Origin: Haloferax marinisediminis
GTDB lineage: Archaea; Halobacteriota; Halobacteria; Halobacteriales; Haloferacaceae
NCBI RefSeq assembly: GCF_009674585.1
Contig: NZ_WKJP01000006.1
Location: forward strand, 62,001-126,000
DNA: 64,000 bases
Direction of reading: 5' to 3'
A model generated the notes under the pieces. It had not been told where the DNA came from. It searched no databases and saw only the letters and a list, made by a program, of their open reading frames with translations. Both the position numbers and the translations under genes were made by a program. Numbering within the stretch: the first letter of the stretch is position 1; each line of letters begins with the position of its first letter. This document shows, piece by piece, positions 7,912 through 25,414 of this stretch.

Positions 7912-8121
7912 GTGATTTTAGAATCCTTCCCCCCATGTCATTTACATTTTCATAACGAACCCGAGTACGTCCTCCAAATTGAGTTAACTAAGCCGAATCG
8001 ATACTTCGCAATTCTCAAAGCTATCGTTGCAGGGGATACCACATCAAATGAAATCACAAAGATGGTTGGAATCGACAGAAAACAGATATCGACCTACACT
8101 TCTAAATATCAATTGAAATAA
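7912..8121 (+). pseudogene. fragment of an archaeal-type AAA ATPase (C-terminal winged-helix part)
   Basis: The 69-residue frame contains YFAILKAIVAGDTTSNEITK followed by VGIDRKQISTYTSKYQ. This resembles the winged-helix segment after the AAA core in archaeal ATPases of the PF01637/DUF234 group, where text such as Y..IL.AIA.G..T..EIA is typical. No Walker motifs or C-terminal nuclease-like part is present, so this is a remnant rather than a working gene. Confidence 0.5.
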
Positions 8122-8170: not shown

Positions 8171-9955
8171 ATGGCGACAGAAGATCAGTCACTTGTAGAC
8201 ACTCATTTTAATTTAGAAGATTCTCCAGACGTTTTGACTCAGATCGGCGGAACGGTCAACAACGACCTATCAAGCCATCTTTTGAGCATTGAAGCAACCC
8301 GTCTAGCTATCGCACAGAGCCAACAGGAACTCCAATCGACAAAAGAAATCGCGGACAAAATCCAGCTCCTCGAACATCAGTTGGATGCAGCACACCGTGC
8401 ATTATTCCAGATGAATGGGCAGGCTCTCTTCGCAGACGAAGTTGGGTTGGGAAAGACCATCGAGGTTGGGATGGTTCTCAAAGAGATGGTGTTCCGAGAG
8501 GCACATGAAACATTCCTCATTCTAACCCCCGCACAACTCGCGACGCAGTGGCAAAAGGAGATGCGAGAAAAGTTTGGCTTAGAGTTCGCGTGTAACTATG
8601 ACGATGGATTCGAGGGTTTCGATGCGTACGACAAGGTAATCGCAAGTATCGATACTGCAAAACGGGACTCGTACGCTGAGGAGATCCACAGACGCAAGTG
8701 GGATGCACTAATTATCGACGAAGTACACTACCTTCGAAATCAAGGAACCAACCGATACGACTTCGTCGAAGACATCGAGTATCAGTATGCATTCTTCGCA
8801 ACGGCAACGCCCGTTCAGAACAACGTCAAAGACCTGTACAACATTGTCAATCTAATCCGACCTGGCTTGTTCGGGACCGAGTCTGAGTTCGAACGGCGAT
8901 ATGTTCCTGAGAAGAATCCGGATGGCGTCCAGAACTCCGCTCAACTGAACAGAGAGCTTCGGTCTGTGATGATCCGGCACAAGCGGGGCGACACAGCAAT
9001 CGACTTTACAGACCGTCAAGTCCGGACGAAAACTTTCAAACCCAACAAGCAAGAGCGGGCCCTCTACGAGGCGGTCACCAACTACGTCAAGAACTATTAC
9101 TCGAAACAAGGAGGCCAACACCTCGTCATGCTGATGTTGCAAAAAGAGGTGGTGAGTTCGCCATGGGCTGTGCTCAAGACAGTCGAAAAGTGGCTCGATG
9201 GAGAGGGGAAAGCCGTCGTAGGAAAAGAGAGAGAGGAGTTACTTTCTGTTGCAAAACTAGCCCGTGAAATCAGTCGGACAACTAAGCAACAAAAGCTCTT
9301 GGAGATTATCCGGAGCGTAAATGACCGGATGGAGACAGGGCGAGCGATCGTATTTACACAATTTCGGGCGACCCAAGACGCGATAATTTCGGCGTTGAAT
9401 GATGAAGATGGGGAAGAAGACATTCCAATTCACGTTGTGAATGGGTCGCTCTCAAGTGACCAAAAGGACGCCCAGATCCGGCATTTCAGAGACCGTGGTG
9501 GGGTGCTCGTGACGACAGACTCGATTAGCGAAGGTCGAAACATCCAATTCTGTAACGTCATCGTGAATTACGACCTCCCATGGAATCCGATGAGTGTCGA
9601 ACAACGGATAGGCCGGATTGACCGGATTGGGCAGGATCGCGACGTGTACGTGTACAATCTCGCGTTAGAGGGAACAGTCGAAGATTACGTGTTGGACAAG
9701 CTCTACGGGAAAATCGACGTTTTCCACCAAACTGTCGGTGGCCTCAAGGAGATCCTCTCCGAGCGCGAGCAGTCCAGTGGACAGTTCGAGCAAGAAGTTC
9801 TCCAACAGATGATAAATGCAGGATCGAAACGAGAACTTGAGAACAATTTCGAAGATATGGCAGTCGATCTGAAAAGCGACATGCGCTCGGCAAAGCAGGC
9901 ACAGCAATTTAACGAACAGGTGTTCGAAGGCTTTGAGACTGGAGGTGGCAAATGA
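8171..9955 (+). CDS. SNF2-family DNA helicase/translocase (restriction module)
   Basis: A 594-residue superfamily 2 ATPase. Motif I is ADEVGLGKTIEVG near residue 90, motif II is DEVH near 182, motif III is ATATPVQN near 215, and the C-terminal RecA domain shows VFTQFRATQD, SEGRNIQ and the arginine-finger motif EQRIGRIDRIGQ near 475-490. The SNF2 class is shown by the DEVGLGKT form and the IGQ ending. SNF2-type motors are restriction components in DISARM and in bacterial Dpd clusters (DpdE is, from memory, such a protein). It is first in an operon whose next two genes overlap it by 4 bp and 1 bp. It should use ATP to move on DNA and position the nuclease two genes downstream. Confidence 0.9.
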   Translation: MATEDQSLVDTHFNLEDSPDVLTQIGGTVNNDLSSHLLSIEATRLAIAQSQQELQSTKEIADKIQLLEHQLDAAHRALFQMNGQALFADEVGLGKTIEVGMVLKEMVFREAHETFLILTPAQLATQWQKEMREKFGLEFACNYDDGFEGFDAYDKVIASIDTAKRDSYAEEIHRRKWDALIIDEVHYLRNQGTNRYDFVEDIEYQYAFFATATPVQNNVKDLYNIVNLIRPGLFGTESEFERRYVPEKNPDGVQNSAQLNRELRSVMIRHKRGDTAIDFTDRQVRTKTFKPNKQERALYEAVTNYVKNYYSKQGGQHLVMLMLQKEVVSSPWAVLKTVEKWLDGEGKAVVGKEREELLSVAKLAREISRTTKQQKLLEIIRSVNDRMETGRAIVFTQFRATQDAIISALNDEDGEEDIPIHVVNGSLSSDQKDAQIRHFRDRGGVLVTTDSISEGRNIQFCNVIVNYDLPWNPMSVEQRIGRIDRIGQDRDVYVYNLALEGTVEDYVLDKLYGKIDVFHQTVGGLKEILSEREQSSGQFEQEVLQQMINAGSKRELENNFEDMAVDLKSDMRSAKQAQQFNEQVFEGFETGGGK

Positions 9956-11979
9956 AGTCAGAGGTCGACACGTCGATTTTAAACAGTGTCAATATCAAAC
10001 GATTCACGAAATCGGTTCTCGAAGAACACGGAGCCTCTCTCGACCGGTCAAACAGCGCAAAGTGGCAGGTCGATTTCCCAGCAGGGCTGTCCCAAGAACT
10101 TGACCGACAGCAGGGGACGTTGGTGTTTGACCCTGCAGACAAGACCCTTGGAGAGGGGGATTTACTCGTCCAGCCCGGGACACGCGTGTTTTCTGCACTC
10201 CTTGACTTAGTTCAGAAGCCGGCAAGCCTAGGTCGACTCCGACTCACAGAAGACAATCTCCAGATTAACCCACCGGACGTCTTTGAACCATCTAACTTGG
10301 GTGTCGATATCACAGAGTTCCAAAAGAACGACTCTGACTTCGCACTCACATTCCACTTCCGAGTCCAATTTGAGACGCCTGCATCCTTCCACAGCGAAGA
10401 GATGTTCTCCGTAACAATTGATCCACAGACACAGGCTCGCCTGCCAGACCTCACTGCGAGGCTCACATCACACCTACCACAATTACTCCAGCAAAACAAC
10501 GAAGGAGAGCGCAGAAGCGTCTCAGAAGCTGCGGTCCAAGAATCATTTAGCAAGGCTCAGCAAGCAGTTATTAATCGATCCCGGCCAATCATCTCTGAGA
10601 TTCAAACCGAAGCAGATGACAGTGCAACGGAGCGGATTGACGAAATTCGGTCGTGGTACGAACAGCGTCAATCGGAACTCGACGAGCAAATTACGTCCCA
10701 AGTCGAAGAGATTCGAAAATGGAACAAAAAGTACCGAAAGGCACGCAAAGACAGCACACGCCGGAAATACATTAACAACAAACGCGAGGCAGAAAGGAAT
10801 CTGGAACAACTGAAGAAGACGGTCGAAAAAAAGAAGCGGGAACTCGACGAGGAGGAGGCAACTGAAATCGACGAGGTGATAGACCGGAATGAGGTCAAGG
10901 TTGACGTCTCCCTCGTTGGTGTGACTGAGATTACGTACGTCCGTGGAACACTCACGCTGGATATTCAATCCAGTCAGGTACAAACCCAAGCTGAAGTCAC
11001 ATACCATCCTGCAACAGACGAGTATCATGGGCTCGACTGTGAAGTCTGCTCGAGAGACCTCACTGAGGGAGTCCTCCCACGATTGTGTTCGAACGGGCAC
11101 CTGGTCGGTGACCCGTGTTCGAATAGCTGCCGAAACTGCGACTTAGCCTACTGTGATGACTGTGACACAACCGCTACACTCGATAACTGTACGGTCTGCT
11201 TGGAAGACGTCTGTCAGAGTTGTGTTGAAGTCTGTCTGACGTGTGAATCGGCCGTGTGCAGTGACCACACAGATATTTGTGATTCCTGTGGACAGGCTAC
11301 GTGCCATCTGTGTGGTGAAGAATGCACGACCTGTGGCTCGTTCCATTGCGACACCCATCTCGAACTGTGCTCAGAGTGTGACGACTATCACTGTGATACT
11401 CACACAGATTCGTGTGCTCAATGCGGGTCAGTCCGGTGTGAAGCACATCTCGAAACTTGCGACACGTGTGGCGACCTCCTCTGTGAAGATCACACTGCAT
11501 CTTGCGCGACTTGTGACGAGACAGTCTGTGATGACCACGTCGAGTACTGTGAGGTCTGTCTCGCACACTCAGTGGCTGAGCCACGAGGGTTCTGCGACCA
11601 TCACACAGAGCACTGTTCTGTAGGTGGAGAAGTCCTGTGTGCGACACACAGAGATTCGACAACGCTTGGCTCAGGTCACGTCTGTGAAAACCATCGGGCA
11701 GCCTGCAGTACCTGTACAATAGAATATCGCGAAACGAACCTGACGAATGGACAGTGCTCAGCTTGTAATTCACTCGGTGAGGTGGACGAAGACCACATCC
11801 CAACGGTGGTCTCGAAAGAATACCGGTCTGTCAAAGCCGGGGCAAACGACGCATACATGGTAATTCTTGGTAAGCAACTTCTCGGCCGGAATAAACTAAT
11901 CGTGTACGATATCAAAACTGGTGAGGAAGCCCACCGACAGAGTGCAGGACTGCTGAAGCAACTCTTGGGAGGAATCTAA
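9952..11979 (+). CDS. coiled-coil protein with a tandem zinc-repeat array
   Basis: 675 residues; the ATG overlaps the helicase stop (ATGA). The N-terminal 200 residues are a mixed domain I do not recognise. Residues about 200-315 form a long Glu/Lys/Arg-rich coiled coil. From residue 413 to 532 there are eight contiguous 15-residue units of the form C-x2-C-x4-C-x2-[H/C]-x3, for example CDTCGDLLCEDHTAS and CSECDDYHCDTHTDS, preceded and followed by looser Cys/His clusters. This resembles a string of B-box-like zinc knuckles. The C-terminal 55 residues are a small beta domain. Placement between helicase and nuclease genes suggests a scaffold or substrate-recognition subunit. No family name can be given. 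Confidence 0.85.
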   Translation: MKSEVDTSILNSVNIKRFTKSVLEEHGASLDRSNSAKWQVDFPAGLSQELDRQQGTLVFDPADKTLGEGDLLVQPGTRVFSALLDLVQKPASLGRLRLTEDNLQINPPDVFEPSNLGVDITEFQKNDSDFALTFHFRVQFETPASFHSEEMFSVTIDPQTQARLPDLTARLTSHLPQLLQQNNEGERRSVSEAAVQESFSKAQQAVINRSRPIISEIQTEADDSATERIDEIRSWYEQRQSELDEQITSQVEEIRKWNKKYRKARKDSTRRKYINNKREAERNLEQLKKTVEKKKRELDEEEATEIDEVIDRNEVKVDVSLVGVTEITYVRGTLTLDIQSSQVQTQAEVTYHPATDEYHGLDCEVCSRDLTEGVLPRLCSNGHLVGDPCSNSCRNCDLAYCDDCDTTATLDNCTVCLEDVCQSCVEVCLTCESAVCSDHTDICDSCGQATCHLCGEECTTCGSFHCDTHLELCSECDDYHCDTHTDSCAQCGSVRCEAHLETCDTCGDLLCEDHTASCATCDETVCDDHVEYCEVCLAHSVAEPRGFCDHHTEHCSVGGEVLCATHRDSTTLGSGHVCENHRAACSTCTIEYRETNLTNGQCSACNSLGEVDEDHIPTVVSKEYRSVKAGANDAYMVILGKQLLGRNKLIVYDIKTGEEAHRQSAGLLKQLLGGI

Positions 11980-12629
11980 TGAGCGATCAAGACACTCTCG
12001 AGAAGACGGTAGCCGACACCAATTCACTTGCAGAATTCCTTGAAGCGACAGACGCCCCAACTAAAGACCAGGCAAGCGCGGTTATCAAGCACGTCTGGGG
12101 GAGAGATGTGCCACAGAAGCGGGCAGAGGCAATACTCAACAAAGAACGAGAGCGTCTTGCACAATTCGAGAACGTTTCTTTCACACAGAACTCGCGTGCT
12201 CCACGTTATATGGATCTGACCGACCTGGAGCTTGTGTCCGGTCATGAATTCGAACACATTCTGGCCGAGGTCCTCAGCCGTATTGAGGGAAGCGCAACCG
12301 TCACAAAGGCATCAGGCGATCAGGGTGTCGACGTTGTTTGGTTCCGCGACACGGAGACCATCGGGATCCAAGCAAAGGCATACAATAAGGACAATCCAGT
12401 CGGGAATAGTGCTGTCCAAGAAATCTTCACGGGATCAAAAGTCCTTGACCTGGAGTATTCAATTGACAAGTCCGCAGTGGTGACCACTTCGAGATACACG
12501 GAGAGTGCAATCGAGGCAGCCGAGAAATCAGGAGTCCGTTTGTATGGCCGGTCGCAACTGTCGCAATGGCTGTCTGAAGCGAAGTTAGATGCAGAAGCGA
12601 TGGGTGACCTCTTAGACAGGATCCGCTGA
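11979..12629 (+). CDS. Mrr-like restriction endonuclease
   Basis: 216 residues; its ATG shares a base with the previous stop (TAATG). The C-terminal half is an Mrr_cat PD-(D/E)XK domain: a helix with FEHILAEVLSRI, then the catalytic pair GDQGVDVVW and IGIQAKAYN (D...QxK), and a downstream strand SAVVTTSRYT with AAEKSGVRLYG. The N-terminal 80 residues are helical and may bind the partner proteins. Mrr-type nucleases cut modified or foreign DNA. With the helicase and zinc-array protein it forms a three-subunit set that I infer to be the restriction arm of the island. Confidence 0.88.
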   Translation: MSDQDTLEKTVADTNSLAEFLEATDAPTKDQASAVIKHVWGRDVPQKRAEAILNKERERLAQFENVSFTQNSRAPRYMDLTDLELVSGHEFEHILAEVLSRIEGSATVTKASGDQGVDVVWFRDTETIGIQAKAYNKDNPVGNSAVQEIFTGSKVLDLEYSIDKSAVVTTSRYTESAIEAAEKSGVRLYGRSQLSQWLSEAKLDAEAMGDLLDRIR

Positions 12630-12695: not shown

Positions 12696-13546
12696 CTATT
12701 TTTTTAAAGCGTCAGGACTGTCTTCGACAGTAATCTCCGGTGCGAAAAACGAGGAATGTTTACGCACGAAGGTTACCTTCTCACGGCGGTTTGAGGAATC
12801 TGTGTAGAGGTACCCAATTAACTGATCACGCCCTTCAGACTCAAAGTGTCGGACACGCATGGTCCCGCGGTCAAAATCAACTGGGAGATTGTCATAGCTC
12901 TCGGATTGGAATGTACACACAAGCTCTGAATTTGGTGCATCACCTCGAATGATCGATGCAGAATCACTGCGCCAATACTCACTGTCCAGATCAATGTACG
13001 CGATTCCCATCTGTGTCCAGCTTTGAGAGATGATCAAATGCGGAGCATTCTCGAGTGCACCAACAAGATCCTCGTCGTATTCCACCCCAGAAGGTTCGGA
13101 AGAATCGCGACAGACCGAACCCAGACCCCCTGTAAATCGGGCAATTCCTCACCTTTACTCATCAGAGATAACAAACGCCAGAAGAAGACGTTGTGTCCAG
13201 TGTAGAGTAAAGTGAACGCGAGAGTGGCTGTGATCATAATGGTGTTTTCGGCCAGTGCAGCACCAAGCGTGTTCGGAAGGTATCCAGCGAAGGTGGGAAC
13301 AACGGTCGAATTAAGAACGGGGTTCAATATGAGAGCGAGAAGTAGCGCGAACATCCCCATGTACCCAATGTACAGAAATCGGCCCTCGTCAACTGAATAC
13401 GTGTGCATCTCAGATTGAATAGACTCACACGCGCTGACTGTAATTAATTTACCCCCTGACAGATCATCGAGACTCCCGAGGGTAACCCATGGACGGAAGA
13501 TAGATGAGAGAGAAGAGAATTGGTTTACTTTCAGTCTGCGGAACAC
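12696..13546 (-). pseudogene. 2TM/beta-barrel (Cap15-like) effector gene with frameshift
   Basis: The first frame (13546-13034) gives two transmembrane helices (GMFALLLALILNP and TLAFTLLYTGHNVFF regions) followed by LPDLQGVW. The second frame (to 12696) gives HLIISQSWTQMGIAYIDL, then FDRGTMRVRHFESEG and LIGYLYTDSSNRREKVTFVR. Two TM helices, a P-x-L-x-G-x-W strand and this strand series are the pattern of the SMODS-associated 2TM beta-rich effector, the Cap15 fold of CBASS. Reading through to RDSSEPSGVEYDED needs a one-base shift near 13105-13120. No CD-NTase gene is in the window. Divergent from queD with 30 bp between starts. Confidence 0.65.
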
Positions 13547-16309: not shown

Positions 16310-17467
16310 TTAGAAGGCCTCCTCAACAACCTCCGTAGAGATGACATCGTAATCAGCATCCACCGCGTCGTCAAGGAGTCGACTGCAGAGCGCTAAGATT
16401 TGGCGAACATTCCCTTGAGATCGTTGGAGAATCACATTCAAACTCTCTTCAGTAAATGGTCGAAGGTCAGTCTCCTCTTCCGCAGATAGACGTTCTAAGG
16501 CGAGGTAATCATGAATAAGATTGTATAGATGGTCGCTAGTTAGCGGCTTCAATGTCACCTCTTGACCGATACGTTCGCTGAATGCGTGATATTCGCTCAT
16601 GACGTCCTGCCACACTTCTGGTGCACAACCAAAGAGTAGGCAAAGTCCAGAGCTATTCTGGTCCATGAGATGTCGGACGCTGTTGAGCGTCGCCTGCTCG
16701 TACTTCGGAGAGAGACGTGCGATACTCTCGAACTCGTCTACGAAGACAAACACAGCGGTATACCCGAGGTCAAGGAGCATATTCTTCAATGCAGTAAAAG
16801 CCCTGACACCCATGGTATCATCGTCGAGTGCACTGTGAATCTCCATCTCTTTGCGTTGCTCGTACCGAATCCCTTCGGCCGTAAGCCACTGCCACGCATA
16901 GAGGTTGGTATCTTCGTATATCATGTGGACAATCGCCCGAGCAAAGTCAGCGAATTTCGTGATGTCGCTTAATTCCCTGATTGCCTCTGGAATGATTTCT
17001 GGGAGTAAGACGTCTCCTTCGTCGATGAGTGACCGCATCTCTGCGGCACCTTCTGGTGACTCATCAGTGCATTCTCGAGTGATTGAAGCCAGGTACTCGT
17101 ACGACAAGTTCTGTAAATGACTGAACCCGAGATCGTAGACGAACTCGTGATAGATATCGAGGAAGCCCTCTCCCGGTTGGGCAACATAGCCTACAATCAC
17201 GTCGTCGTGGTCACGAAGCAGTGAGCGTGTGTATTTCAGCGTATGCGACTTCCCATTCCCATACTTTCCTGTGACGACGAGGTGCTTCGACTTGCCAGTC
17301 GACAGTACCGTCGAAACCGTCGAGCTAATCTTCTCTGAAACATGGCTCTGTCCACAGAATATCTCAGGGTTTTCGGCTGGGACTGGACTATACGGGAAGG
17401 GGTTTCCGCTGAGGCCGTATTTTGAGTAATCGCGCTGCTGGTCTGTGATGTTGAAGTTACTGGACAT
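16310..17467 (-). CDS. AAA+ ATPase of the modification island
   Basis: 385 residues. Starts with a YGLSGNPFPYSPV segment typical of ORC/TniB/BREX-like ATPases. Walker A is GKYGNGKSHT (67-76), Walker B VFVFVDEFESI (239-249), followed by a sensor region GLCLLFGCAPEVW and a C-terminal helical lid. Not an origin-binding Orc1 (no winged helix is apparent after the lid). It is the last gene of an operon with the HTH protein (1-bp overlap) and the small TGT-like protein (4-bp overlap). Related ATPases occur in Dpd and BREX clusters; this one may drive target remodelling or restriction. Exact family not assigned. Confidence 0.85.
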   Translation of the reverse strand: MSSNFNITDQQRDYSKYGLSGNPFPYSPVPAENPEIFCGQSHVSEKISSTVSTVLSTGKSKHLVVTGKYGNGKSHTLKYTRSLLRDHDDVIVGYVAQPGEGFLDIYHEFVYDLGFSHLQNLSYEYLASITRECTDESPEGAAEMRSLIDEGDVLLPEIIPEAIRELSDITKFADFARAIVHMIYEDTNLYAWQWLTAEGIRYEQRKEMEIHSALDDDTMGVRAFTALKNMLLDLGYTAVFVFVDEFESIARLSPKYEQATLNSVRHLMDQNSSGLCLLFGCAPEVWQDVMSEYHAFSERIGQEVTLKPLTSDHLYNLIHDYLALERLSAEEETDLRPFTEESLNVILQRSQGNVRQILALCSRLLDDAVDADYDVISTEVVEEAF

Positions 17468-18363
17468 TAGTGTGTCTCTTGTTCAAACGTGATGTCGCGG
17501 TCGTGGACCGCGAGGTAGTAGTATTTCTTACCGTACAATTCGACGCCTGCCATGACTCGCTGAGTCGACTGCGAAGTCGTGATTAGCGAGCCTTCGTCAG
17601 CGAGTTCAATTTGTTTGATTCCGAGCGTTGCATCCTTCGCGGCCGTGTCCATCGGTGCGCCAGAGAGCTCGATTTTACCAACGTTCTGCTGGCAAAGCTC
17701 AAGCACCGCTTCGTCGAAATCTCGTCTCCGACACCCAATTCGTTCGCAGATATTCTCTCGGAGTCGTGGAATCGAGAGGTACCGTTGACGCAAGTTGACC
17801 CCCGCTGTTTGTTCGAGGTTGTCATAGGTGTCTAATAGGATGAAGTGAAAGTTGCTCGGGATTTCAGTCTCGTTCGAGAGGTAGTAGTCCCCAGAGAAGG
17901 CATTCCGCTGCACACTTCCAAGCCGTTCAGCCCAATCACCAACGATCTCGATACCAGTCTGGTTGAATGAATATGGCGTATACTCCTGTGTCTTCTCAAG
18001 GTGTTCTAAGAGTGTGTCGAGGTCAGCATATCCAATTTCTTCAAGCGCTTGGAGGAATGCACCGTAGTGAGGACTTCGGGCAGCGAGAATCGAGCTGACT
18101 TTCCTCCAGTTTTCGGCACGGATAGAGTCCAAGAACGACTTTCCGATGCCCGTAGTCGTGTAGACGAACTCGTCACCATCTTCACTCTCTGATAACAGTG
18201 AAACCCGTGTCGCTTCGAGGATCGTCTCTCGCGCTCTCCGATGATTTACATCGAGTGCTTCAGCCAGTTCTGCTGTTGACCTGTATTCGTCTTCACATGC
18301 GTACGTGAGCTCCACGAGTCGACTCAGCGTAACAGGACGGATAGTCGGTCGCTCATCGCTCAT
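17467..18363 (-). CDS. winged-helix-like protein coupled to TGT and AAA genes
   Basis: 298 residues. The N-terminal 70 residues look like a DNA-binding winged helix: RPVTLSRLVELTYACEDEYR, then STAELAEALDVNHRRARETI and a TGIGKSFLDS wing end. The middle part resembles further HTH repeats (LQALEEIGYADLDTLLEHLE), and residues about 190-235 give RQRYLSIPRLRENICERIG. The C-terminal segment is beta-rich and ends in FEQETH. Start and stop overlap both neighbours, so it is part of a fixed three-gene set. It could be the DNA-sensing subunit that recruits the transglycosylase or ATPase. Family not recognised. Confidence 0.8.
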   Translation of the reverse strand: MSDERPTIRPVTLSRLVELTYACEDEYRSTAELAEALDVNHRRARETILEATRVSLLSESEDGDEFVYTTTGIGKSFLDSIRAENWRKVSSILAARSPHYGAFLQALEEIGYADLDTLLEHLEKTQEYTPYSFNQTGIEIVGDWAERLGSVQRNAFSGDYYLSNETEIPSNFHFILLDTYDNLEQTAGVNLRQRYLSIPRLRENICERIGCRRRDFDEAVLELCQQNVGKIELSGAPMDTAAKDATLGIKQIELADEGSLITTSQSTQRVMAGVELYGKKYYYLAVHDRDITFEQETH

Positions 18364-19394
18364 GTGAGCCTCCGAACCTGCTGTTTTGCGGTCTGGTATG
18401 CGCGACTCGTCACCTCATTGCCCTGGAACCGAAGGTCTAGGTAATCCTCAATGTTCCGCCCGGATTCAGCAACGTATTGGAATCGGCGTAATTCCGTTGC
18501 CAACGCCCAGAGGTTGTGTTGAACGAGAGCAGAGCGATCTTCACGAATGTCGTCCAGTGTTCGAGTACCACAGACTGGGCATGGACACGGGAGTCGCTCC
18601 AACTGTTCTATGTCCTGTAATTCTTCTCCACCAAAACCTGGTATCAGGTAATTCCGATTGCCTGCTCCTCGAATGAAAGCGGATGAATCGAAACTATCGA
18701 CGCCGAGATAGAGAAGAAGTGGTTGATAGACGAGACCACCAAGCCCGTACACGTGGAGGTGTTTGTCGGTGGCGGTTCGCGCTGATAATATCAGTTTTGT
18801 TACTTTTTTGTAATCTGACCGTATTGGAACCATGCTCCCGAGGGCATAGCCATCGAAATCACCGAACTTCTCTAGATGAGCGATGCAATTGCGAACGGTC
18901 TCCGGATCGTACCCGTGAACACTCGCGAATAACAACGCCTCGCCAGAGTGCTGGTCACTTGCTTCGAGCGCATATTCGATACTTTGGTTGACACGGCGCT
19001 GGTTTTCTGCCGCACGTTTTTCTCGTGAAAGTGGGACATCAACCGTACCGTAAATGTCCGCATCGAGTTGACGTTGTGCCTCAAGTGTTTTTTTGGGGGT
19101 AGTGTCGACTTCACCTGAACTGAAGTCGAATCCACCGCTATCCGCAAACACGATTGTATCTTCAGGAACGCCCATCTCCTCGCGGAGTGTAACACCGTTC
19201 AGTAACCGATCCCACATCGGTGTGCGATTACGAATTGCCCGTGTATTGATCATCGCCACCGGTAAATCCGGTATGGACCCCACATACGATGGTGTGTTGT
19301 CACTTGACCGTTTCCCGATATTCCGGACCGGGAAAAAGACAGGTGTGTTTAGTTTCCCGTGAGGGAGGTCAATTGTCCGACGTCTGTATAGCAT
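18360..19394 (-). CDS. compact TGT-like transglycosylase (DpdA-like paralogue)
   Basis: 344 residues with a tRNA-guanine transglycosylase barrel. Residue D85 in FADSGGFDF corresponds to the general acid/base Asp of TGT; GYALGSMVP (183-191) and HVYGLGG (214-220) match TGT substrate-binding loops; VDSFDSSAF (232-240) holds the nucleophile Asp equivalent; C270, C272, C275 and H293 form the TGT zinc site. There is no PUA domain, which archaeal tRNA enzymes carry, so DNA or a special substrate is likely. It is the first gene of an operon with the winged-helix and AAA proteins (ATGA overlap). Gene symbol withheld because a second, larger DpdA follows. Confidence 0.85.
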   Translation of the reverse strand: MLYRRRTIDLPHGKLNTPVFFPVRNIGKRSSDNTPSYVGSIPDLPVAMINTRAIRNRTPMWDRLLNGVTLREEMGVPEDTIVFADSGGFDFSSGEVDTTPKKTLEAQRQLDADIYGTVDVPLSREKRAAENQRRVNQSIEYALEASDQHSGEALLFASVHGYDPETVRNCIAHLEKFGDFDGYALGSMVPIRSDYKKVTKLILSARTATDKHLHVYGLGGLVYQPLLLYLGVDSFDSSAFIRGAGNRNYLIPGFGGEELQDIEQLERLPCPCPVCGTRTLDDIREDRSALVQHNLWALATELRRFQYVAESGRNIEDYLDLRFQGNEVTSRAYQTAKQQVRRLT

Positions 19395-19478
19395 ACCTCC
19401 CGCCCGTGTAGGCTGTTAACATACTTAGAAAATGTCCACGAAAAGTCAGAAGGTGAAAGAAAAAAGACTGTACGTTAA

Positions 19479-22373
19479 TTAATACTGTTTGAGCTCAACT
19501 TGTGTCGGGTCTTCATCGACTTCCCGACATAGTGTTTCGATAAGTCCGGGGTTTAGTAGTTCAATATTCTCGACACGTCGTGCGAAGTTTTTGAGGTAAA
19601 CTCCCTTCAAGCCGACGACGATTGTACCATGGTTTTTGGCGTCATCAGTCCGGGCGGGGACAGACACGATATTGTCGAATTGTTCGTCGACAATCTCCCG
19701 ATTGAACACGACGCCAATCTGGTCTGCACGGATTCGCTGTATCATCGAGTCGATATCGATGCTGTTGTAGTAGTCCTTCCCCAGCGTGAAGAACACGACA
19801 TCGAAGTTGCCTTCGTCGAAGACTTTTTCGAGATCTGACCGGATATGCAGTTTCGAGGAACGGTCACGGATTTCGGCAACCTTCATCGAACTGAACGTCA
19901 CTTCGTACGGTGGTAGCGGTTCGTTCTCTGGAACTAATCCGAAGCCAGCGCTGATGAAGTAGCGTGATACTTGGTGGCCGCCATCTCTCAGTTTTCTGAC
20001 TGCTTCGCGGACGTAGTTCTGTTGACGGCCAGTATACAGGTCAGATGCTGCGATACCGGGAACATTCTCCCTATCTAACAGTTCCTCTCGCGAGAATTTG
20101 AGCGTCTCCTCTGCGTCGAATACGGGCGCCCCATCCGGGAACTCCTTACTGCCCGAACACTGGTCGACAACGAGGATGTTGAGTCCGTCAGCAGGATTCG
20201 CCTCGGGAGCGTGCGGGATGAAATCGTCACCAACGACGTAATCCTCGCCACACGCTTCGAGGACGTCTCTGCGGAGCACAGCAGAATCGGAAAACGTGTG
20301 TAGCTCGCAGTTGGAGGATTCGACTCCCTCGGCGAGTGCAGGGTCTACGTCACCGTCTGGTGTGACGAGGAAGAGGTGTTGGTACCGCTTCGACTGCTCT
20401 CCCAGATTGTCTGCCGTTCGAGTTGTCGAAAACGAGACACTGGAGTTGGTCTCCTCCCACCACTCAGTGACGCCACTAGCGTCGAAGACACCGATTTCGG
20501 CTACAGGGAGATCGTGGACCTGTTGCCAGAATTCGGGTTCTTCGCTTCGGAGGTACTCCTCGATAGTGTCGTAATTGCTGAGGCCTGCCGAACCTCGAAC
20601 CGCGATGAGAATTTTCGGAATCGCGTCGTCGAACTCGTCGTAGAAGCGACGTGTGTTGTGGAATCCACGACGCCGGTTTCGGTCATTTCCTCGGAAGATA
20701 CAGACCTCGATTCCGTGCTCCTCACAGATCGGGCATTCGCATTTTTCCCACGGGCGGTTAGCGAGCGTCCGCTGATAGTCCTCTAACAGATCGTCATCAC
20801 CAATCCAGGTGGCATAGTCCTCGACGACAGCCCAAATCTCGTCGTATGGCGTCGAGTCTGCTCCGTCGATGATCGCGGGCGTTCGCGGGAAAGTCGCAAA
20901 CTCATCTTCAGCAGTGTTCAGCAGGTCTTCGTACTCAGAGAACGGGAGTGGGTCTTCTGAGCTGTCCTTCCGCAGGAGTTTGACGATCTTCCCTCGTAGG
21001 GCATCGCTGAAACTGGCCTGCAGTTCGCGAGCGTATTCGAAGTCATCTCGAAGGGTTGCTTCGATGTCCTGGAGAAGCGACTGGTCGTACCGACTGTCGT
21101 GGCGGTGTTCACGGAGGTACTCCCGGGTTTTCGGGAGGACAGTAGCAGCCAGCTCATGCCATTCGTGGACCGCGTCCGTAAGAGACCCCTCAGCGTCGTA
21201 CGCTCGCAACGCAACGAGCGTTTCTCTCCCACGTAGCGACTTCTGAACGGACTCGTCTAACGAATCACGATTCGAGGGGTACCGAACACGAATTGCATCG
21301 TAGCGTTCGTCGTGGTCGAGCCGATAGTTGTCGCCGCCAGTCCACGCGGAACGGAGCATACTCGCACTGTCGAAACTCGTCATTCCCGAGCGGCCAACAG
21401 TATCGAATCCCTCCGTCTTCGCAAACCCGAAGACGTGTGTATCGATACGTCGGGTGTGTTCGCGTTCGAACTCCTTGACGGATTTCCCGACGTTTTTGAC
21501 GATCTTTCGGACGTCGTGGATTGGACTGCCCGCGACACCACCGATTCCCACGTAGTCGTATCCGATTCCGAGGACGTACTCGAGGGCTTCGACGTAGGAT
21601 TCTGGGTCCCAACCCTGGATAGCGACCATCAAGCGGAACGAATAGTCGCCCGCGTGGTACTGCTCGTACATCTCCTGGGCGTTGTCGAGCGTGAGTTCGT
21701 ACCGGAATGCCGCATCGTCAGCACGATAAACTGCACGCGAATCCTCTGCTAACTCAGTGAGGACAGCATCCACGTCGCCCTCGAAATCAGACCGCGTAAA
21801 TGGTGTAACAGCAGCATCTGTGCGAATGCTTGGTTCGTACTCATCGACGTAGCTCGGCCACTCATCGGGCCACTCATCGATCATCAAATCGACGACATCG
21901 GTTATGCTGTCTGGGATGTCAGACTTCGAAAACCCGCCACCGAAAGCGCGTTTGTCGAGATAGAGACGCCCCTTGTCTTTTCCAGACCCTAAGACAAGAT
22001 GGTCGATAGTGACACCAACAGAGACCTTCAGGTCTTCATAGAAATCCAGCATCTCTGCATTGTCGTAAGGGGGAAACGGGAGCGATTTGTACCCCCACGC
22101 GCCGCAGTCACTGATTGTCGGGAGCCATTCCGGGATAGAGAGAACAGGGTCATCGTAGACACCGTGCTTGCGCAATCGTTGAGATTTCCGGATCGAGCTT
22201 TCGACTTGTTCGCGCGAAATCAGTACCCCATCGATGGGAGTGGTATCGTGTTCAAAAATATCCCAGATGTAGCTGAGCTCACGCTCCTGACGGTCGACAG
22301 TAGAGAGTTCGTCGTGTTCGAAATCATAGCCAGCATCGACAGCATCGTCCCATTCTGGAACGTAGAATCGCAC
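19479..22373 (-). CDS. dpdA: DpdA-type DNA transglycosylase fused to a YaaA/DUF6884-like domain
   Basis: 964 residues. The start MRFYVPEWDDAVDAGYDF and the block ISDCGAWGY (87-95, D89 as acid/base), VTIDHLVLGS, GIGGVAGSPIHDV, THVFGFAKTEGF and GMTSFDSASML (330-340, D335 as nucleophile candidate) fit the DpdA branch of the TGT superfamily, which exchanges guanine in DNA for preQ0. A TGT zinc site is seen as C545, C547, C550 and H571. From residue 731 to about 890 lies a second domain: LNILVVDQCSGSKEF, DLYTGRQQNYV, YFISAGFGLVPENEPLPPYE, resembling YaaA/DUF6884 domains and, in the CSxSK motif, the ArcS catalytic region. It could further modify the inserted base. Separated by 84 bp from the next operon. 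Confidence 0.85.
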   Translation of the reverse strand: MRFYVPEWDDAVDAGYDFEHDELSTVDRQERELSYIWDIFEHDTTPIDGVLISREQVESSIRKSQRLRKHGVYDDPVLSIPEWLPTISDCGAWGYKSLPFPPYDNAEMLDFYEDLKVSVGVTIDHLVLGSGKDKGRLYLDKRAFGGGFSKSDIPDSITDVVDLMIDEWPDEWPSYVDEYEPSIRTDAAVTPFTRSDFEGDVDAVLTELAEDSRAVYRADDAAFRYELTLDNAQEMYEQYHAGDYSFRLMVAIQGWDPESYVEALEYVLGIGYDYVGIGGVAGSPIHDVRKIVKNVGKSVKEFEREHTRRIDTHVFGFAKTEGFDTVGRSGMTSFDSASMLRSAWTGGDNYRLDHDERYDAIRVRYPSNRDSLDESVQKSLRGRETLVALRAYDAEGSLTDAVHEWHELAATVLPKTREYLREHRHDSRYDQSLLQDIEATLRDDFEYARELQASFSDALRGKIVKLLRKDSSEDPLPFSEYEDLLNTAEDEFATFPRTPAIIDGADSTPYDEIWAVVEDYATWIGDDDLLEDYQRTLANRPWEKCECPICEEHGIEVCIFRGNDRNRRRGFHNTRRFYDEFDDAIPKILIAVRGSAGLSNYDTIEEYLRSEEPEFWQQVHDLPVAEIGVFDASGVTEWWEETNSSVSFSTTRTADNLGEQSKRYQHLFLVTPDGDVDPALAEGVESSNCELHTFSDSAVLRRDVLEACGEDYVVGDDFIPHAPEANPADGLNILVVDQCSGSKEFPDGAPVFDAEETLKFSREELLDRENVPGIAASDLYTGRQQNYVREAVRKLRDGGHQVSRYFISAGFGLVPENEPLPPYEVTFSSMKVAEIRDRSSKLHIRSDLEKVFDEGNFDVVFFTLGKDYYNSIDIDSMIQRIRADQIGVVFNREIVDEQFDNIVSVPARTDDAKNHGTIVVGLKGVYLKNFARRVENIELLNPGLIETLCREVDEDPTQVELKQY

Positions 22374-22747: not shown

Positions 22748-25414
22748 CTAATCTAAAAACCGTTGGAAATTTGCTGTAATGACGGTCTCTTGTCTCTTCG
22801 CCTCTGTCTCGACAATTTCCCTGTAATTGATCTCTTCGTCCTCATTATCGTCTTCATCTTCTCCACCATACTCATTATCCAGAAGTTGTATAGATGTAGC
22901 AACTTGCTCCAGAATCTCTATCTTCCGCTCTGTCACGCCCTCGTAGGTCCATCGCCGGTTGTAGTCATCAGCCACGTTCGCCAATTCCTCCATTCTCGAC
23001 TCAACCGATTCCACGAACTCCTCATAGCTAGATACAGAGTCAAATCCAAGTTCGGTGACTGTGCTTCCGTACGTGTCCTCACCGACCTCCTCAAGAGTCT
23101 CTGCTAGCCGCATGTATTCATCTAGCTCAGAGAATTCCGGCGTGTCGATATACTGGTTGTAGAGACTCTCGTTCACCGACAGTTCGTCGAAACCGTCCGT
23201 TTTATCGTATGCGTACGCTTTCTTTGCGAAGGGCAAGTTCCCGATCGATTGGTTTTCGGTGAAACGTAGGAGAGTCAGATTTCCCAGGCTGTGTATGTAC
23301 TTCTCTGCGAGTTCCCCAAGGTGGTCATCGGCCTCTTGATCGATGAGTCCTTCAACGACTCCCTGAAGGGTGTAGTCACCATCATCTCGTTGGGGAGCGT
23401 TCTCTGTACAAAAGAACCACCGGTACCAATCGTACTTGTCCCCATGGTTCTCAAGGAGCGGAGACTGAGGAAAGATATGCTCGATATGGACCACTTCATC
23501 ATCTTCATTGAGGGTCTTCAACACCATCTCATCGTCACCAACCATAGCTTCAGAGACTAACTTCCTGAGTAGTTGCTTGCCCATGTCAGGCCGCCAGTCA
23601 CTCTCGCATAGTAGTTTGACGAGAGGTTCACCGAACAACTGACTGTTCTCGCTACGTGCTTCTCTGACTAACTGTTGCTTTACCTCCTCTGAGAAGCCGT
23701 TATCGGTGAACTCACCCACTGCTGCCGCGTACGAGTTGTCCTTAACATGAACATCTCGACTCACGTAAAGCCGGACAGTCATGGACTCCACAGTCCGGAG
23801 TAATTCGAGTAGGTCACCCTGGCGATCCATGTGGTGCTCACATACATCGTGATACGCTGCGAGAACCAATGGTTGCCAAACACTGGTGTTCGCCTTAGAC
23901 AAGCGTATCAGGATGCGGTTACACTCCGACTCAGTGTCCTGGTCTCCCTCCTCGCCGAGGTCGATTCCGTAGTTCTCGGGATCCACGAGGTGGTGATAGT
24001 AGACAGCATACTCCTGCAGGTCTTCAATTAGTTCCTTCGCATCGTCAATGTTACTCAGATGTGTCGATAGTCTTCGAGAGTCGTCCTCAGTCTCTTCGAG
24101 GGTGAACGCCTCTAATAGGTGGTCGCCGATATCTCCCCGGGCATTGATACCGTCCTCCGTCACGACGAAATATGTCTTGAGGAAGTCGAGTATTCTTCTA
24201 TGATCGGTGTCGAACTCGTCCACCACAGATTCCCAACGACGAGTGTACTCGTCATACTCGCGCTCCGATGCATCGCGTCGGAGTCTACCGATGATTCGTG
24301 TCCTGATGATGTCAGTCTGCTTGAGTTCGACTCCACGATTGTTGAGGACTTCAAAAATCTTCATCAGAAGTTGGGGCTGGTTATCATCCACCTCGAAGTA
24401 GCCAACATAGAAGCATTGCAGAATGAATTCTTTCAGGTTTACCAGAAAGAGGTACTGCTTCTCAGGGTTTGGACGGTTCTCGAGTTCCCCGTCGATACGC
24501 TTCGAGAAAAATCTGTATGCCTTTCTAATTTGATTATTGGAATTTTTGAATTTGACCTTACCATTTATCAGAATCTCTTTTTGCAGGTCCGTGAAATCGG
24601 ATGCGTCGTCCTTACCAGACGGCATACCTGCATGTGACTTCATCAGGTTCGGCCTAGACCCATCTGTCTCCTCGTACAGACTGTCATCAGCTATTGCATC
24701 GAGGTAAGCGTCGTGCTCAAGATCGAATTCATCCAGGAACGTCTTGATACGAATAGCATTGTTCTTGGTATTGTTGCTCACCCCTTCGTTCTGGATAATA
24801 TACCGAATGAGGGCCTCCTCACCCCTCATCAGGGCAGAGAAGAACTCGCGGTTGTGTTGATCAAGTTCTAGAGACGGACCTAATGTCGGGTCTCCGTTGG
24901 TGTAGATGAGCGATTGTGTTTTGCCTACGTGACCGGAGTACTGACTGATGAACCTACTCCCGCAATCGGGAAGGTTCTCGACGAGATGGTCGGCGATTAT
25001 TTTGAAGAGAACGGAGAGGGTCGTCACTCGCTGTTGACCATCGATGACGTCGAAGACATGACCATCACGGTTGATATCCTTACGATCGGAGAAGAACATC
25101 GAACCAAAAAACACGTCTGAACCCCGTCGTGATACACTCCGTCCGTTTGACTCGAGGAGAGGGATAATCTCGGCCCAGAATTCATCCCATTGCTCCGTGT
25201 CCCATTCATATCCACGTTGATAGTCTGGGATGTGGAACTCTTTGTGGAAAAATTCGTTGAGTGGAACCCTGTCGATTTCAATATGATCTCGAACCCGGGT
25301 GCGGATCAAGTCGGTATAGACTATTTCGTTTTGACCGGCCTCCCCCTCGAAACGAAGAAGTTTGTTCCCTAGAACATCCTCTATACTCATAGTGTCATGT
25401 GTGCTAGATACCAC
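22748..25414 (-). CDS. DUF262-DUF1524 protein (GmrSD-like type IV restriction enzyme)
   Basis: 888 residues. The N-terminal DUF262 domain shows FHIPDYQRGYEW (60-71) and DVIDGQQRVTT (122-132), the NTPase motif. The C-terminal DUF1524 part shows VHIEHIFPQSP near 640 and SLGNLTLL near 708, the HNH-like nuclease motif. GmrSD and related enzymes hydrolyse NTP and cut DNA that carries base modifications. It lies beside dpdA, on the same strand. Two readings are possible: a nuclease that destroys phage DNA with other modifications, or an ATPase partner of DpdA, in the way ATP-hydrolysing DpdB is needed in bacteria. The frame is full length and all motifs are intact. Start ATG 25414; a second ATG at 25390 is possible. 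Confidence 0.88.
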   Translation of the reverse strand: MVSSTHDTMSIEDVLGNKLLRFEGEAGQNEIVYTDLIRTRVRDHIEIDRVPLNEFFHKEFHIPDYQRGYEWDTEQWDEFWAEIIPLLESNGRSVSRRGSDVFFGSMFFSDRKDINRDGHVFDVIDGQQRVTTLSVLFKIIADHLVENLPDCGSRFISQYSGHVGKTQSLIYTNGDPTLGPSLELDQHNREFFSALMRGEEALIRYIIQNEGVSNNTKNNAIRIKTFLDEFDLEHDAYLDAIADDSLYEETDGSRPNLMKSHAGMPSGKDDASDFTDLQKEILINGKVKFKNSNNQIRKAYRFFSKRIDGELENRPNPEKQYLFLVNLKEFILQCFYVGYFEVDDNQPQLLMKIFEVLNNRGVELKQTDIIRTRIIGRLRRDASEREYDEYTRRWESVVDEFDTDHRRILDFLKTYFVVTEDGINARGDIGDHLLEAFTLEETEDDSRRLSTHLSNIDDAKELIEDLQEYAVYYHHLVDPENYGIDLGEEGDQDTESECNRILIRLSKANTSVWQPLVLAAYHDVCEHHMDRQGDLLELLRTVESMTVRLYVSRDVHVKDNSYAAAVGEFTDNGFSEEVKQQLVREARSENSQLFGEPLVKLLCESDWRPDMGKQLLRKLVSEAMVGDDEMVLKTLNEDDEVVHIEHIFPQSPLLENHGDKYDWYRWFFCTENAPQRDDGDYTLQGVVEGLIDQEADDHLGELAEKYIHSLGNLTLLRFTENQSIGNLPFAKKAYAYDKTDGFDELSVNESLYNQYIDTPEFSELDEYMRLAETLEEVGEDTYGSTVTELGFDSVSSYEEFVESVESRMEELANVADDYNRRWTYEGVTERKIEILEQVATSIQLLDNEYGGEDEDDNEDEEINYREIVETEAKRQETVITANFQRFLD

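What the first reader, a model, noticed from the sequence alone, without database searches (positions are those of the whole stretch)
8171..12629. Three-gene restriction module: SNF2 motor, zinc-array scaffold, Mrr nuclease
Seen: the genes overlap by 4 bp and 1 bp, and all catalytic motifs are intact. Known: SNF2 motors and PD-(D/E)XK nucleases combine in DISARM and other systems. Inferred: this trio is a restriction complex whose middle subunit, with eight 15-residue zinc units, is of a type I cannot name and may bind DNA or recruit the nuclease.
Basis: partly seen in the sequence, partly recalled or inferred. Interest (0 to 1): 0.75.

Follow-up and report, generated by a model that had tools for sequence, protein, structure and literature searches.

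The report
Split SNF2-nuclease defence module, zinc scaffold
Three neighbouring genes of a salt-loving archaeon look like a DNA-cutting defence enzyme of a known general type that has been split into a motor, a zinc-rich middle piece and a nuclease, and the same trio recurs in other salt-loving archaea.

Summary
In detail: three intact genes (SNF2 594 aa, zinc protein 675 aa, Mrr 216 aa) overlap by 4 and 1 bp, and the middle one has eight 15-residue CxxCx4Cxx[CH] units in register. The trio recurs in scattered haloarchaea with different neighbours; of 86 listed places encoding a relative of the middle protein, 79 have the SNF2 gene beside them, and 23 of 24 other array-bearing places have the Mrr gene. 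It is not tied to que/dpd genes (DpdA in 4 of 23 trio genomes against 51 of 368 others). The middle protein can be partly named: residues about 14-300 match, in profile comparison, the C-terminal half of single-chain HmaA/DrmD-like SNF2 helicases. Motor plus middle protein is best read as one RapA/HmaA-type motor split in two, with a zinc array added before the nuclease. Shorter relatives without the array sit beside SNF2, often with a DUF499 (HmaC-like) ATPase. Arrays hold 6 to 31 strict units and are very acidic, so DNA binding by the array is not favoured; a scaffold or latch for the nuclease is likelier. No methyltransferase accompanies the window's type. Defence function is inferred, not shown. 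A new variant of a known kind.

The parts
8171..9955 (+). SNF2-family motor subunit, 594 aa; nearest profiles DrmD, BrxH, HmaA, DpdE, ZorD
9952..11979 (+). middle protein, 675 aa
9952..11031 (+). N-terminal domain (residues 1-360): alpha+beta with two long helices (192-263, 267-312) between strands; homologous to the C-terminal half of single-chain HmaA/DrmD-like helicases
11038..11772 (+). cysteine/histidine-rich zinc array (residues 363-607); eight strict 15-residue units in register at residues 413-532 (window 11188-11547)
11785..11976 (+). C-terminal small beta domain (residues about 612-675), present in array-bearing relatives, absent from the short ones
11979..12629 (+). Mrr-type PD-(D/E)XK nuclease, 216 aa; best PADLOC match the Mrr end of ZorD

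Best explanation
The trio is a helicase-nuclease effector of the HmaA/RapA-like kind divided over three genes in collinear order. SNF2 plus the first ~360 residues of the middle protein rebuild one RapA/HmaA-type double-stranded-DNA motor; the middle protein then carries a zinc array with eight regular units and a small C-terminal domain that hold the separate Mrr nuclease at a distance from the motor. The likely action: the motor engages and moves along invading DNA, and the tethered nuclease cuts. Shown: gene order, conservation, profile similarity of the N-domain to helicase C-terminal halves, array regularity and acidity. Inferred: complex formation, zinc binding, translocation, cutting, antiviral role. 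With no methyltransferase or DUF499 ATPase beside the window's type, it would have to tell self from foreign by DNA modification (type IV-like) or by DNA structure; which of these is not known.
For: Profile comparison: N-domain vs the last ~350 aa of single-chain haloarchaeal helicases, probability 97.3 (14 sequences, E 2.6e-11) and 97.4 (13 sequences, E 1.4e-11); without the coil (residues 1-188) 75 and 85; 13 decoy clusters gave at most 2.3. Predicted model: long helix pair between sheet strands, as PMC12839542 (section 27) describes for RapA/BrxHII C-terminal domains; the full model aligned E. coli RapA 8spg residues 705-968 to model 5-332, 239 residues, Z 8.3, rmsd 11.1. SNF2 beside 79 of 86 places; Mrr beside 23 of 24 other array-bearing loci and 0 of 15 array-less ones. 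All SNF2 partners of array proteins form one clade, 22 rows, 100/100. Patchy occurrence, three plasmid records with array-type matches, decayed copies, neighbours that match defence profiles.
Against: No experiment. The RapA structural match is rank 39 with large rmsd, and was not in the top 50 when the N-domain was searched alone; Foldseek had nothing at E<=0.001 with either model. E. coli RapA alone gave probability 0.1 and the two-sequence set g3 6.0. The coil adds to the scores, and residues 300-360 alone matched none of the single-chain sets (at most 1.5). The Mrr protein did not match the HmaA profile at E<=0.01. One full SNF2 relative sits without a middle-protein hit (G098:C27), as do two partial matches, G124:C2 and G214:C9.
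Confidence: 0.65

Rival explanations
1. The trio is the restriction arm of the neighbouring 7-deazaguanine (dpd-like) DNA-modification genes, playing the part of DpdE and its partners.
For: It lies next to queD/queE/folE/queC-like genes (names recalled from the translations) and DpdA; the SNF2 protein matches DpdE profiles; in G040 a long-form trio lies about 10 kb from DpdA.
Against: DpdA in 4 of 23 trio genomes vs 51 of 368 others, Fisher p 0.55; dpd core without a trio in the fetched stretch in G112, G348 and G162; no que/dpd gene in the stretches fetched around five named close trios; DpdE score 205.5 against cut-off 500.
Confidence: 0.06
2. The zinc array binds DNA and gives target recognition.
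For: Tandem zinc modules often bind nucleic acid (general knowledge); array length differs between forms.
Against: Array net charge -0.10 to -0.18 per residue with 3.0-6.5% Lys+Arg in 20 of 20 proteins; in the window's own trio the array is -0.153 against -0.051 (N-domain), -0.045 (SNF2) and -0.056 (Mrr). In the two proteins with a methyltransferase neighbour the contrast with the N-domain is slight or absent. No solved DNA-binding array matched.
Confidence: 0.15
3. A housekeeping or repair machine, RapA-like recycling included, not defence.
For: RapA shares the motor and C-terminal architecture; Mrr-type nucleases are not all antiviral (general knowledge).
Against: Array-bearing forms in 23 of 391 class genomes only (sorted), plasmid copies, decayed copies, neighbours that match defence families.
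Confidence: 0.1

Closest known systems
Hma / Type-1 BREX-related (BR) helicase-nuclease effector (HmaA)
   Same: SNF2 motor, RapA-type C-terminal region, then a PD-(D/E)XK nuclease, in that order (PMC12839542); a split two-gene version of the motor occurs beside DUF499 ATPases.
   Different: Three genes instead of one; zinc array in between; no DUF499 ATPase or DUF1156 methyltransferase beside the window's type.
Zorya type I ZorD
   Same: SNF2 motor with an Mrr nuclease; both ends of the trio match ZorD profiles.
   Different: ZorD is one chain; no ZorA, ZorB or ZorC among nine window proteins scanned; the trio adds a RapA-type half and a zinc array.
DISARM DrmD (with DrmMI)
   Same: SNF2 motor scores best against DrmD; a sub-group of related trios sits beside a DrmMI-like methyltransferase.
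   Different: 264.8 bits against cut-off 610; no other protein of the nine scanned matched a DISARM profile.
E. coli RapA
   Same: Motor and C-terminal architecture.
   Different: Single chain, no nuclease, no zinc array; acts on RNA polymerase.

Membership tests
Hma / Type-1 BR | SNF2 helicase with RapA-type C-terminal region | tested here: met
   In split form:
Hma / Type-1 BR | DUF499 ATPase in the locus | tested here: not met
   0 of 12 loci of the window's type (8 distinct places) by tblastn with one haloarchaeal DUF499 protein
Hma / Type-1 BR | DUF1156 N6-methyltransferase in the locus | tested here: not met
   0 of 12; no [DNS]PP[YFW] motif in called ORFs of at least 150 aa in the window's first 30 kb or in five named loci, bar a 154-aa ORF in L082
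Hma / Type-1 BR | PD-(D/E)XK nuclease | tested here: met
   As a separate Mrr gene; no match to the HmaA profile itself
Zorya type I | ZorA/ZorB motor and ZorC | tested here: not met
   No hit among nine window proteins; more distant genes were not scanned
Zorya type I | SNF2 and Mrr fused in ZorD | tested here: not met
   Separate genes with a 675-aa gene between
DISARM | DrmD above curated cut-off | tested here: not met
   264.8 of 610 and 245.6 of 950 bits
Dpd system | DpdE above curated cut-off | tested here: not met
   205.5 of 500 bits
Type IV (Mrr-like) restriction | Cuts modified DNA only | not testable with these tools
   Needs biochemistry or plating

The most novel reading that the evidence does not exclude
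A methyltransferase-free restriction machine in which a RapA-type motor has been split and an acidic zinc rod, 6-9 strict units in some lineages and 23-31 in others, acts as a length-variable latch or DNA mimic that holds the nuclease off until the motor senses foreign or damaged DNA.
Probability: 0.22. Interest if true: 0.75.

Novelty: new variant of a known kind. Interest (0 to 1): 0.5.

Why it matters
It places a protein annotated only as hypothetical as half of a helicase, links array-bearing haloarchaeal trios to the DUF499/HmaA world, and gives a natural series (no array, 6-9 units, 23-31 units) with which to ask what a metal-rich spacer does in a restriction enzyme. How such a system spares its host without a methyltransferase becomes a direct test.

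Tried and rejected
Naming the middle protein from libraries: nothing in PADLOC or NCBIfam at E<=0.01, only a hit below cut-off in Pfam; phrog_36169 of unknown function matched residues 13-372 (7.6e-12). Solved structures by sequence: only weak RING/zinc hits (best E 0.0031, TRIM32) and, for the array alone, E 0.017 or worse; taken as composition. Foldseek with either model: no E<=0.001. Viral contigs: 46 stretches matched a pattern, none encodes a relative; phage records: none. Outside the class: 13 of 294 phylum genomes matched, 12 of them the window's own genome or relatives within its order; the other (G462) matched only in the array, E 3.8e-9 (how many of the 294 lie outside the class was not counted). 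A dpd partnership was rejected on co-occurrence. Literature: the searches listed no paper whose title or abstract start describes this trio; PMC12839542 has no 'split' or 'haloarch' in its main text. Of that paper I read sections 27-31 and 33 and passages; of PMC11890865 passages only; PMC11232893 is not held and is known only from a reference entry; the others from listings only.

Rows dropped before counts: the 86 places are those I took from the printed table (74 of its 78 genomes; G046, G137, G230 and G247, with weak matches, are not among them). The 7 places without SNF2 are G313 (two), G337:C27 and G318 (broken copies), G268 (contig end), and G304:C70 and G337:C21 (weak). The 12 loci of the window's type hold four duplicates of one place under two ids; the five methyltransferase-bearing loci are three distinct places, and a fourth relative, L086, showed no such methyltransferase. 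Of the B-type loci, L045, L051 and L052 were left out of the 12 as broken or incomplete.

Full report
Observation. Eight CxxCx4Cxx[CH] units in exact 15-residue register start at residues 413 to 518; a ninth at 393 is out of register. The window lies in contig C6 of a 3.49-Mb genome, G000. A Haloferax marisrubri contig of the same length as the G040 contig (166953) suggests that G040, of the same genus, is that species (inference).

Relatives. In 391 class genomes, 78 have a match to the middle protein. I fetched 40 stretches around relatives and sorted them by gene content. Type A, as in the window: SNF2 about 595 aa, middle protein 675-676 aa, Mrr 216-220 aa, with no flanking gene shared by all; five in the sample (L031-L035), decayed copies in G313 and G316 and a fragment in G337. 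Named examples are Haloprofundus marisrubri, Halobellus rufus, Halocatena pleomorpha, Haloarcula sebkhae and Halobacteriales archaeon YIM A00013, and a Halocatena salina plasmid whose record calls the three SNF2-related protein, hypothetical protein and restriction endonuclease. Type B: the same three with a 1029-1185-aa middle protein, a 298-aa gene after Mrr and, as a rule, a 286-aa gene and a ~960-aa helicase on the other side (the helicase in 11 of 12 loci). Type B': middle protein of 907-946 aa in two sampled loci, beside a 1352-aa DrmMI-like methyltransferase (three distinct loci). Type C: SNF2 about 584 aa and a ~400-aa relative that ends after the first zinc site, without Mrr; 10 of 16 have a DUF499 (HmaC-like) protein in the fetched stretch and 3 of 16 a DUF1156 methyltransferase (some stretches end too early to tell).

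79 of 86 places have SNF2 within 6 kb; the seven misses are four broken copies, one contig end and two weak matches. Mrr is beside 23 of 24 array-bearing loci (L031-L054, window not counted; broken copies included) and 0 of 15 type C loci. So the refuting result, middle proteins mostly without helicase and nuclease, was not found for array-bearing ones; the array-less relatives, which are more numerous, have the helicase and lack the Mrr gene. DpdA (E below 1e-100) is in 55 of 391 genomes, 4 of them among 23 genomes with an array-bearing locus (p 0.55). The dpd core (DpdA, TGT-like, 298-aa protein, BrxD-like ATPase) stands without a trio in the fetched stretch in G112 and G162 and, without the 298-aa gene, in G348. 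The two are separate systems that share a neighbourhood here.

What the middle protein is. Single-chain haloarchaeal relatives of HmaA and DrmD have about 300-380 residues after the motor. Profile comparison of those with residues 1-360 of the middle protein gave probability 97.3 and 97.4; without the coil 75 and 85; thirteen decoy clusters at most 2.3. The predicted model (pLDDT 82.6) has two long helices between strands of a sheet, the fold that PMC12839542 (section 27, read) gives for the C-terminal domain of BrxHII and RapA. Structure comparison with the whole model listed RapA 8spg, 239 residues aligned, Z 8.3, rmsd 11.1, the only listed row that spans the domain and not just the coil; the N-domain alone did not list it. 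The reading is supported, not proved.

The array. Strict unit counts are 8-9 in type A, 6-7 in B' and 23-31 in B. In all 20 proteins the array is acidic, net -0.10 to -0.18 per residue with 3.0-6.5% Lys+Arg. In types A and B it is more acidic than the N-domain of the same protein; in the two B' proteins the difference is slight or absent. Halophile proteins are acidic in general, but the contrast within the protein argues for a spacer, scaffold or mimic rather than a DNA grip. Type C proteins end, as a rule, in one CxxC...CxxC pair at the place where the array begins, so growth of the array from a single zinc site is an inference.

Descent. In a tree of 52 SNF2 sequences, the partners of array proteins form one clade (22 rows, 100/100), with A (7 rows, 100/100) and B (13 rows, 100/99) inside; type C lies beside it and single-chain forms apart (99/99). 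The split probably came before the array; rooting is by midpoint only, with a very long RapA branch.

Mechanism. HmaA is described as TUDOR, SNF2, inactive REase, alpha+beta domain and active PD-(D/E)XK nuclease in one chain (PMC12839542, section 29). The trio has the order motor, RapA-type half, nuclease over three genes, with an array added. I infer a motor-nuclease complex acting on foreign DNA. With no methyltransferase found beside type A, self must be spared in another way; modification-dependent or structure-dependent cutting are both open.

Noticed in passing
window 12696-13546 (-): Two overlapping ORFs in different frames match the first and second half of the same 2TM effector families (PADLOC, phrog_23442): probably one frameshifted membrane effector gene.
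   Followed up: partly
window 16310-22373 (-): DpdA, a TGT-like protein, a 298-aa protein and a BrxD-like ATPase form a core that recurs in other haloarchaea; the pairing with a BrxD-like ATPase is unexplained.
   Followed up: partly
window 19479-22373 (-): DpdA fused to a C-terminal DUF6884/DpdC-like domain; in about 20 other genomes the two parts are adjacent separate frames.
   Followed up: partly
window 7912-8121 (+): 69-aa ORF just upstream of the trio that clusters with longer proteins (464 and 218 aa) in L040 and L057: probably a truncated remnant.
   Followed up: no
window 22748-25414 (-): GmrSD-type protein (GmrSD_N 3.8e-29, GmrSD_C 6.1e-11).
   Followed up: no
L038 6230-7066 (-) and 13386-14282 (+): The conserved 278-aa and 298-aa partners of the long-form trio match no Pfam, PADLOC, NCBIfam or PHROGs family at the thresholds used.
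   Followed up: partly
G462:C35:10459-10743: A frame in another part of the phylum matches the zinc array only (E 3.8e-9).
   Followed up: no
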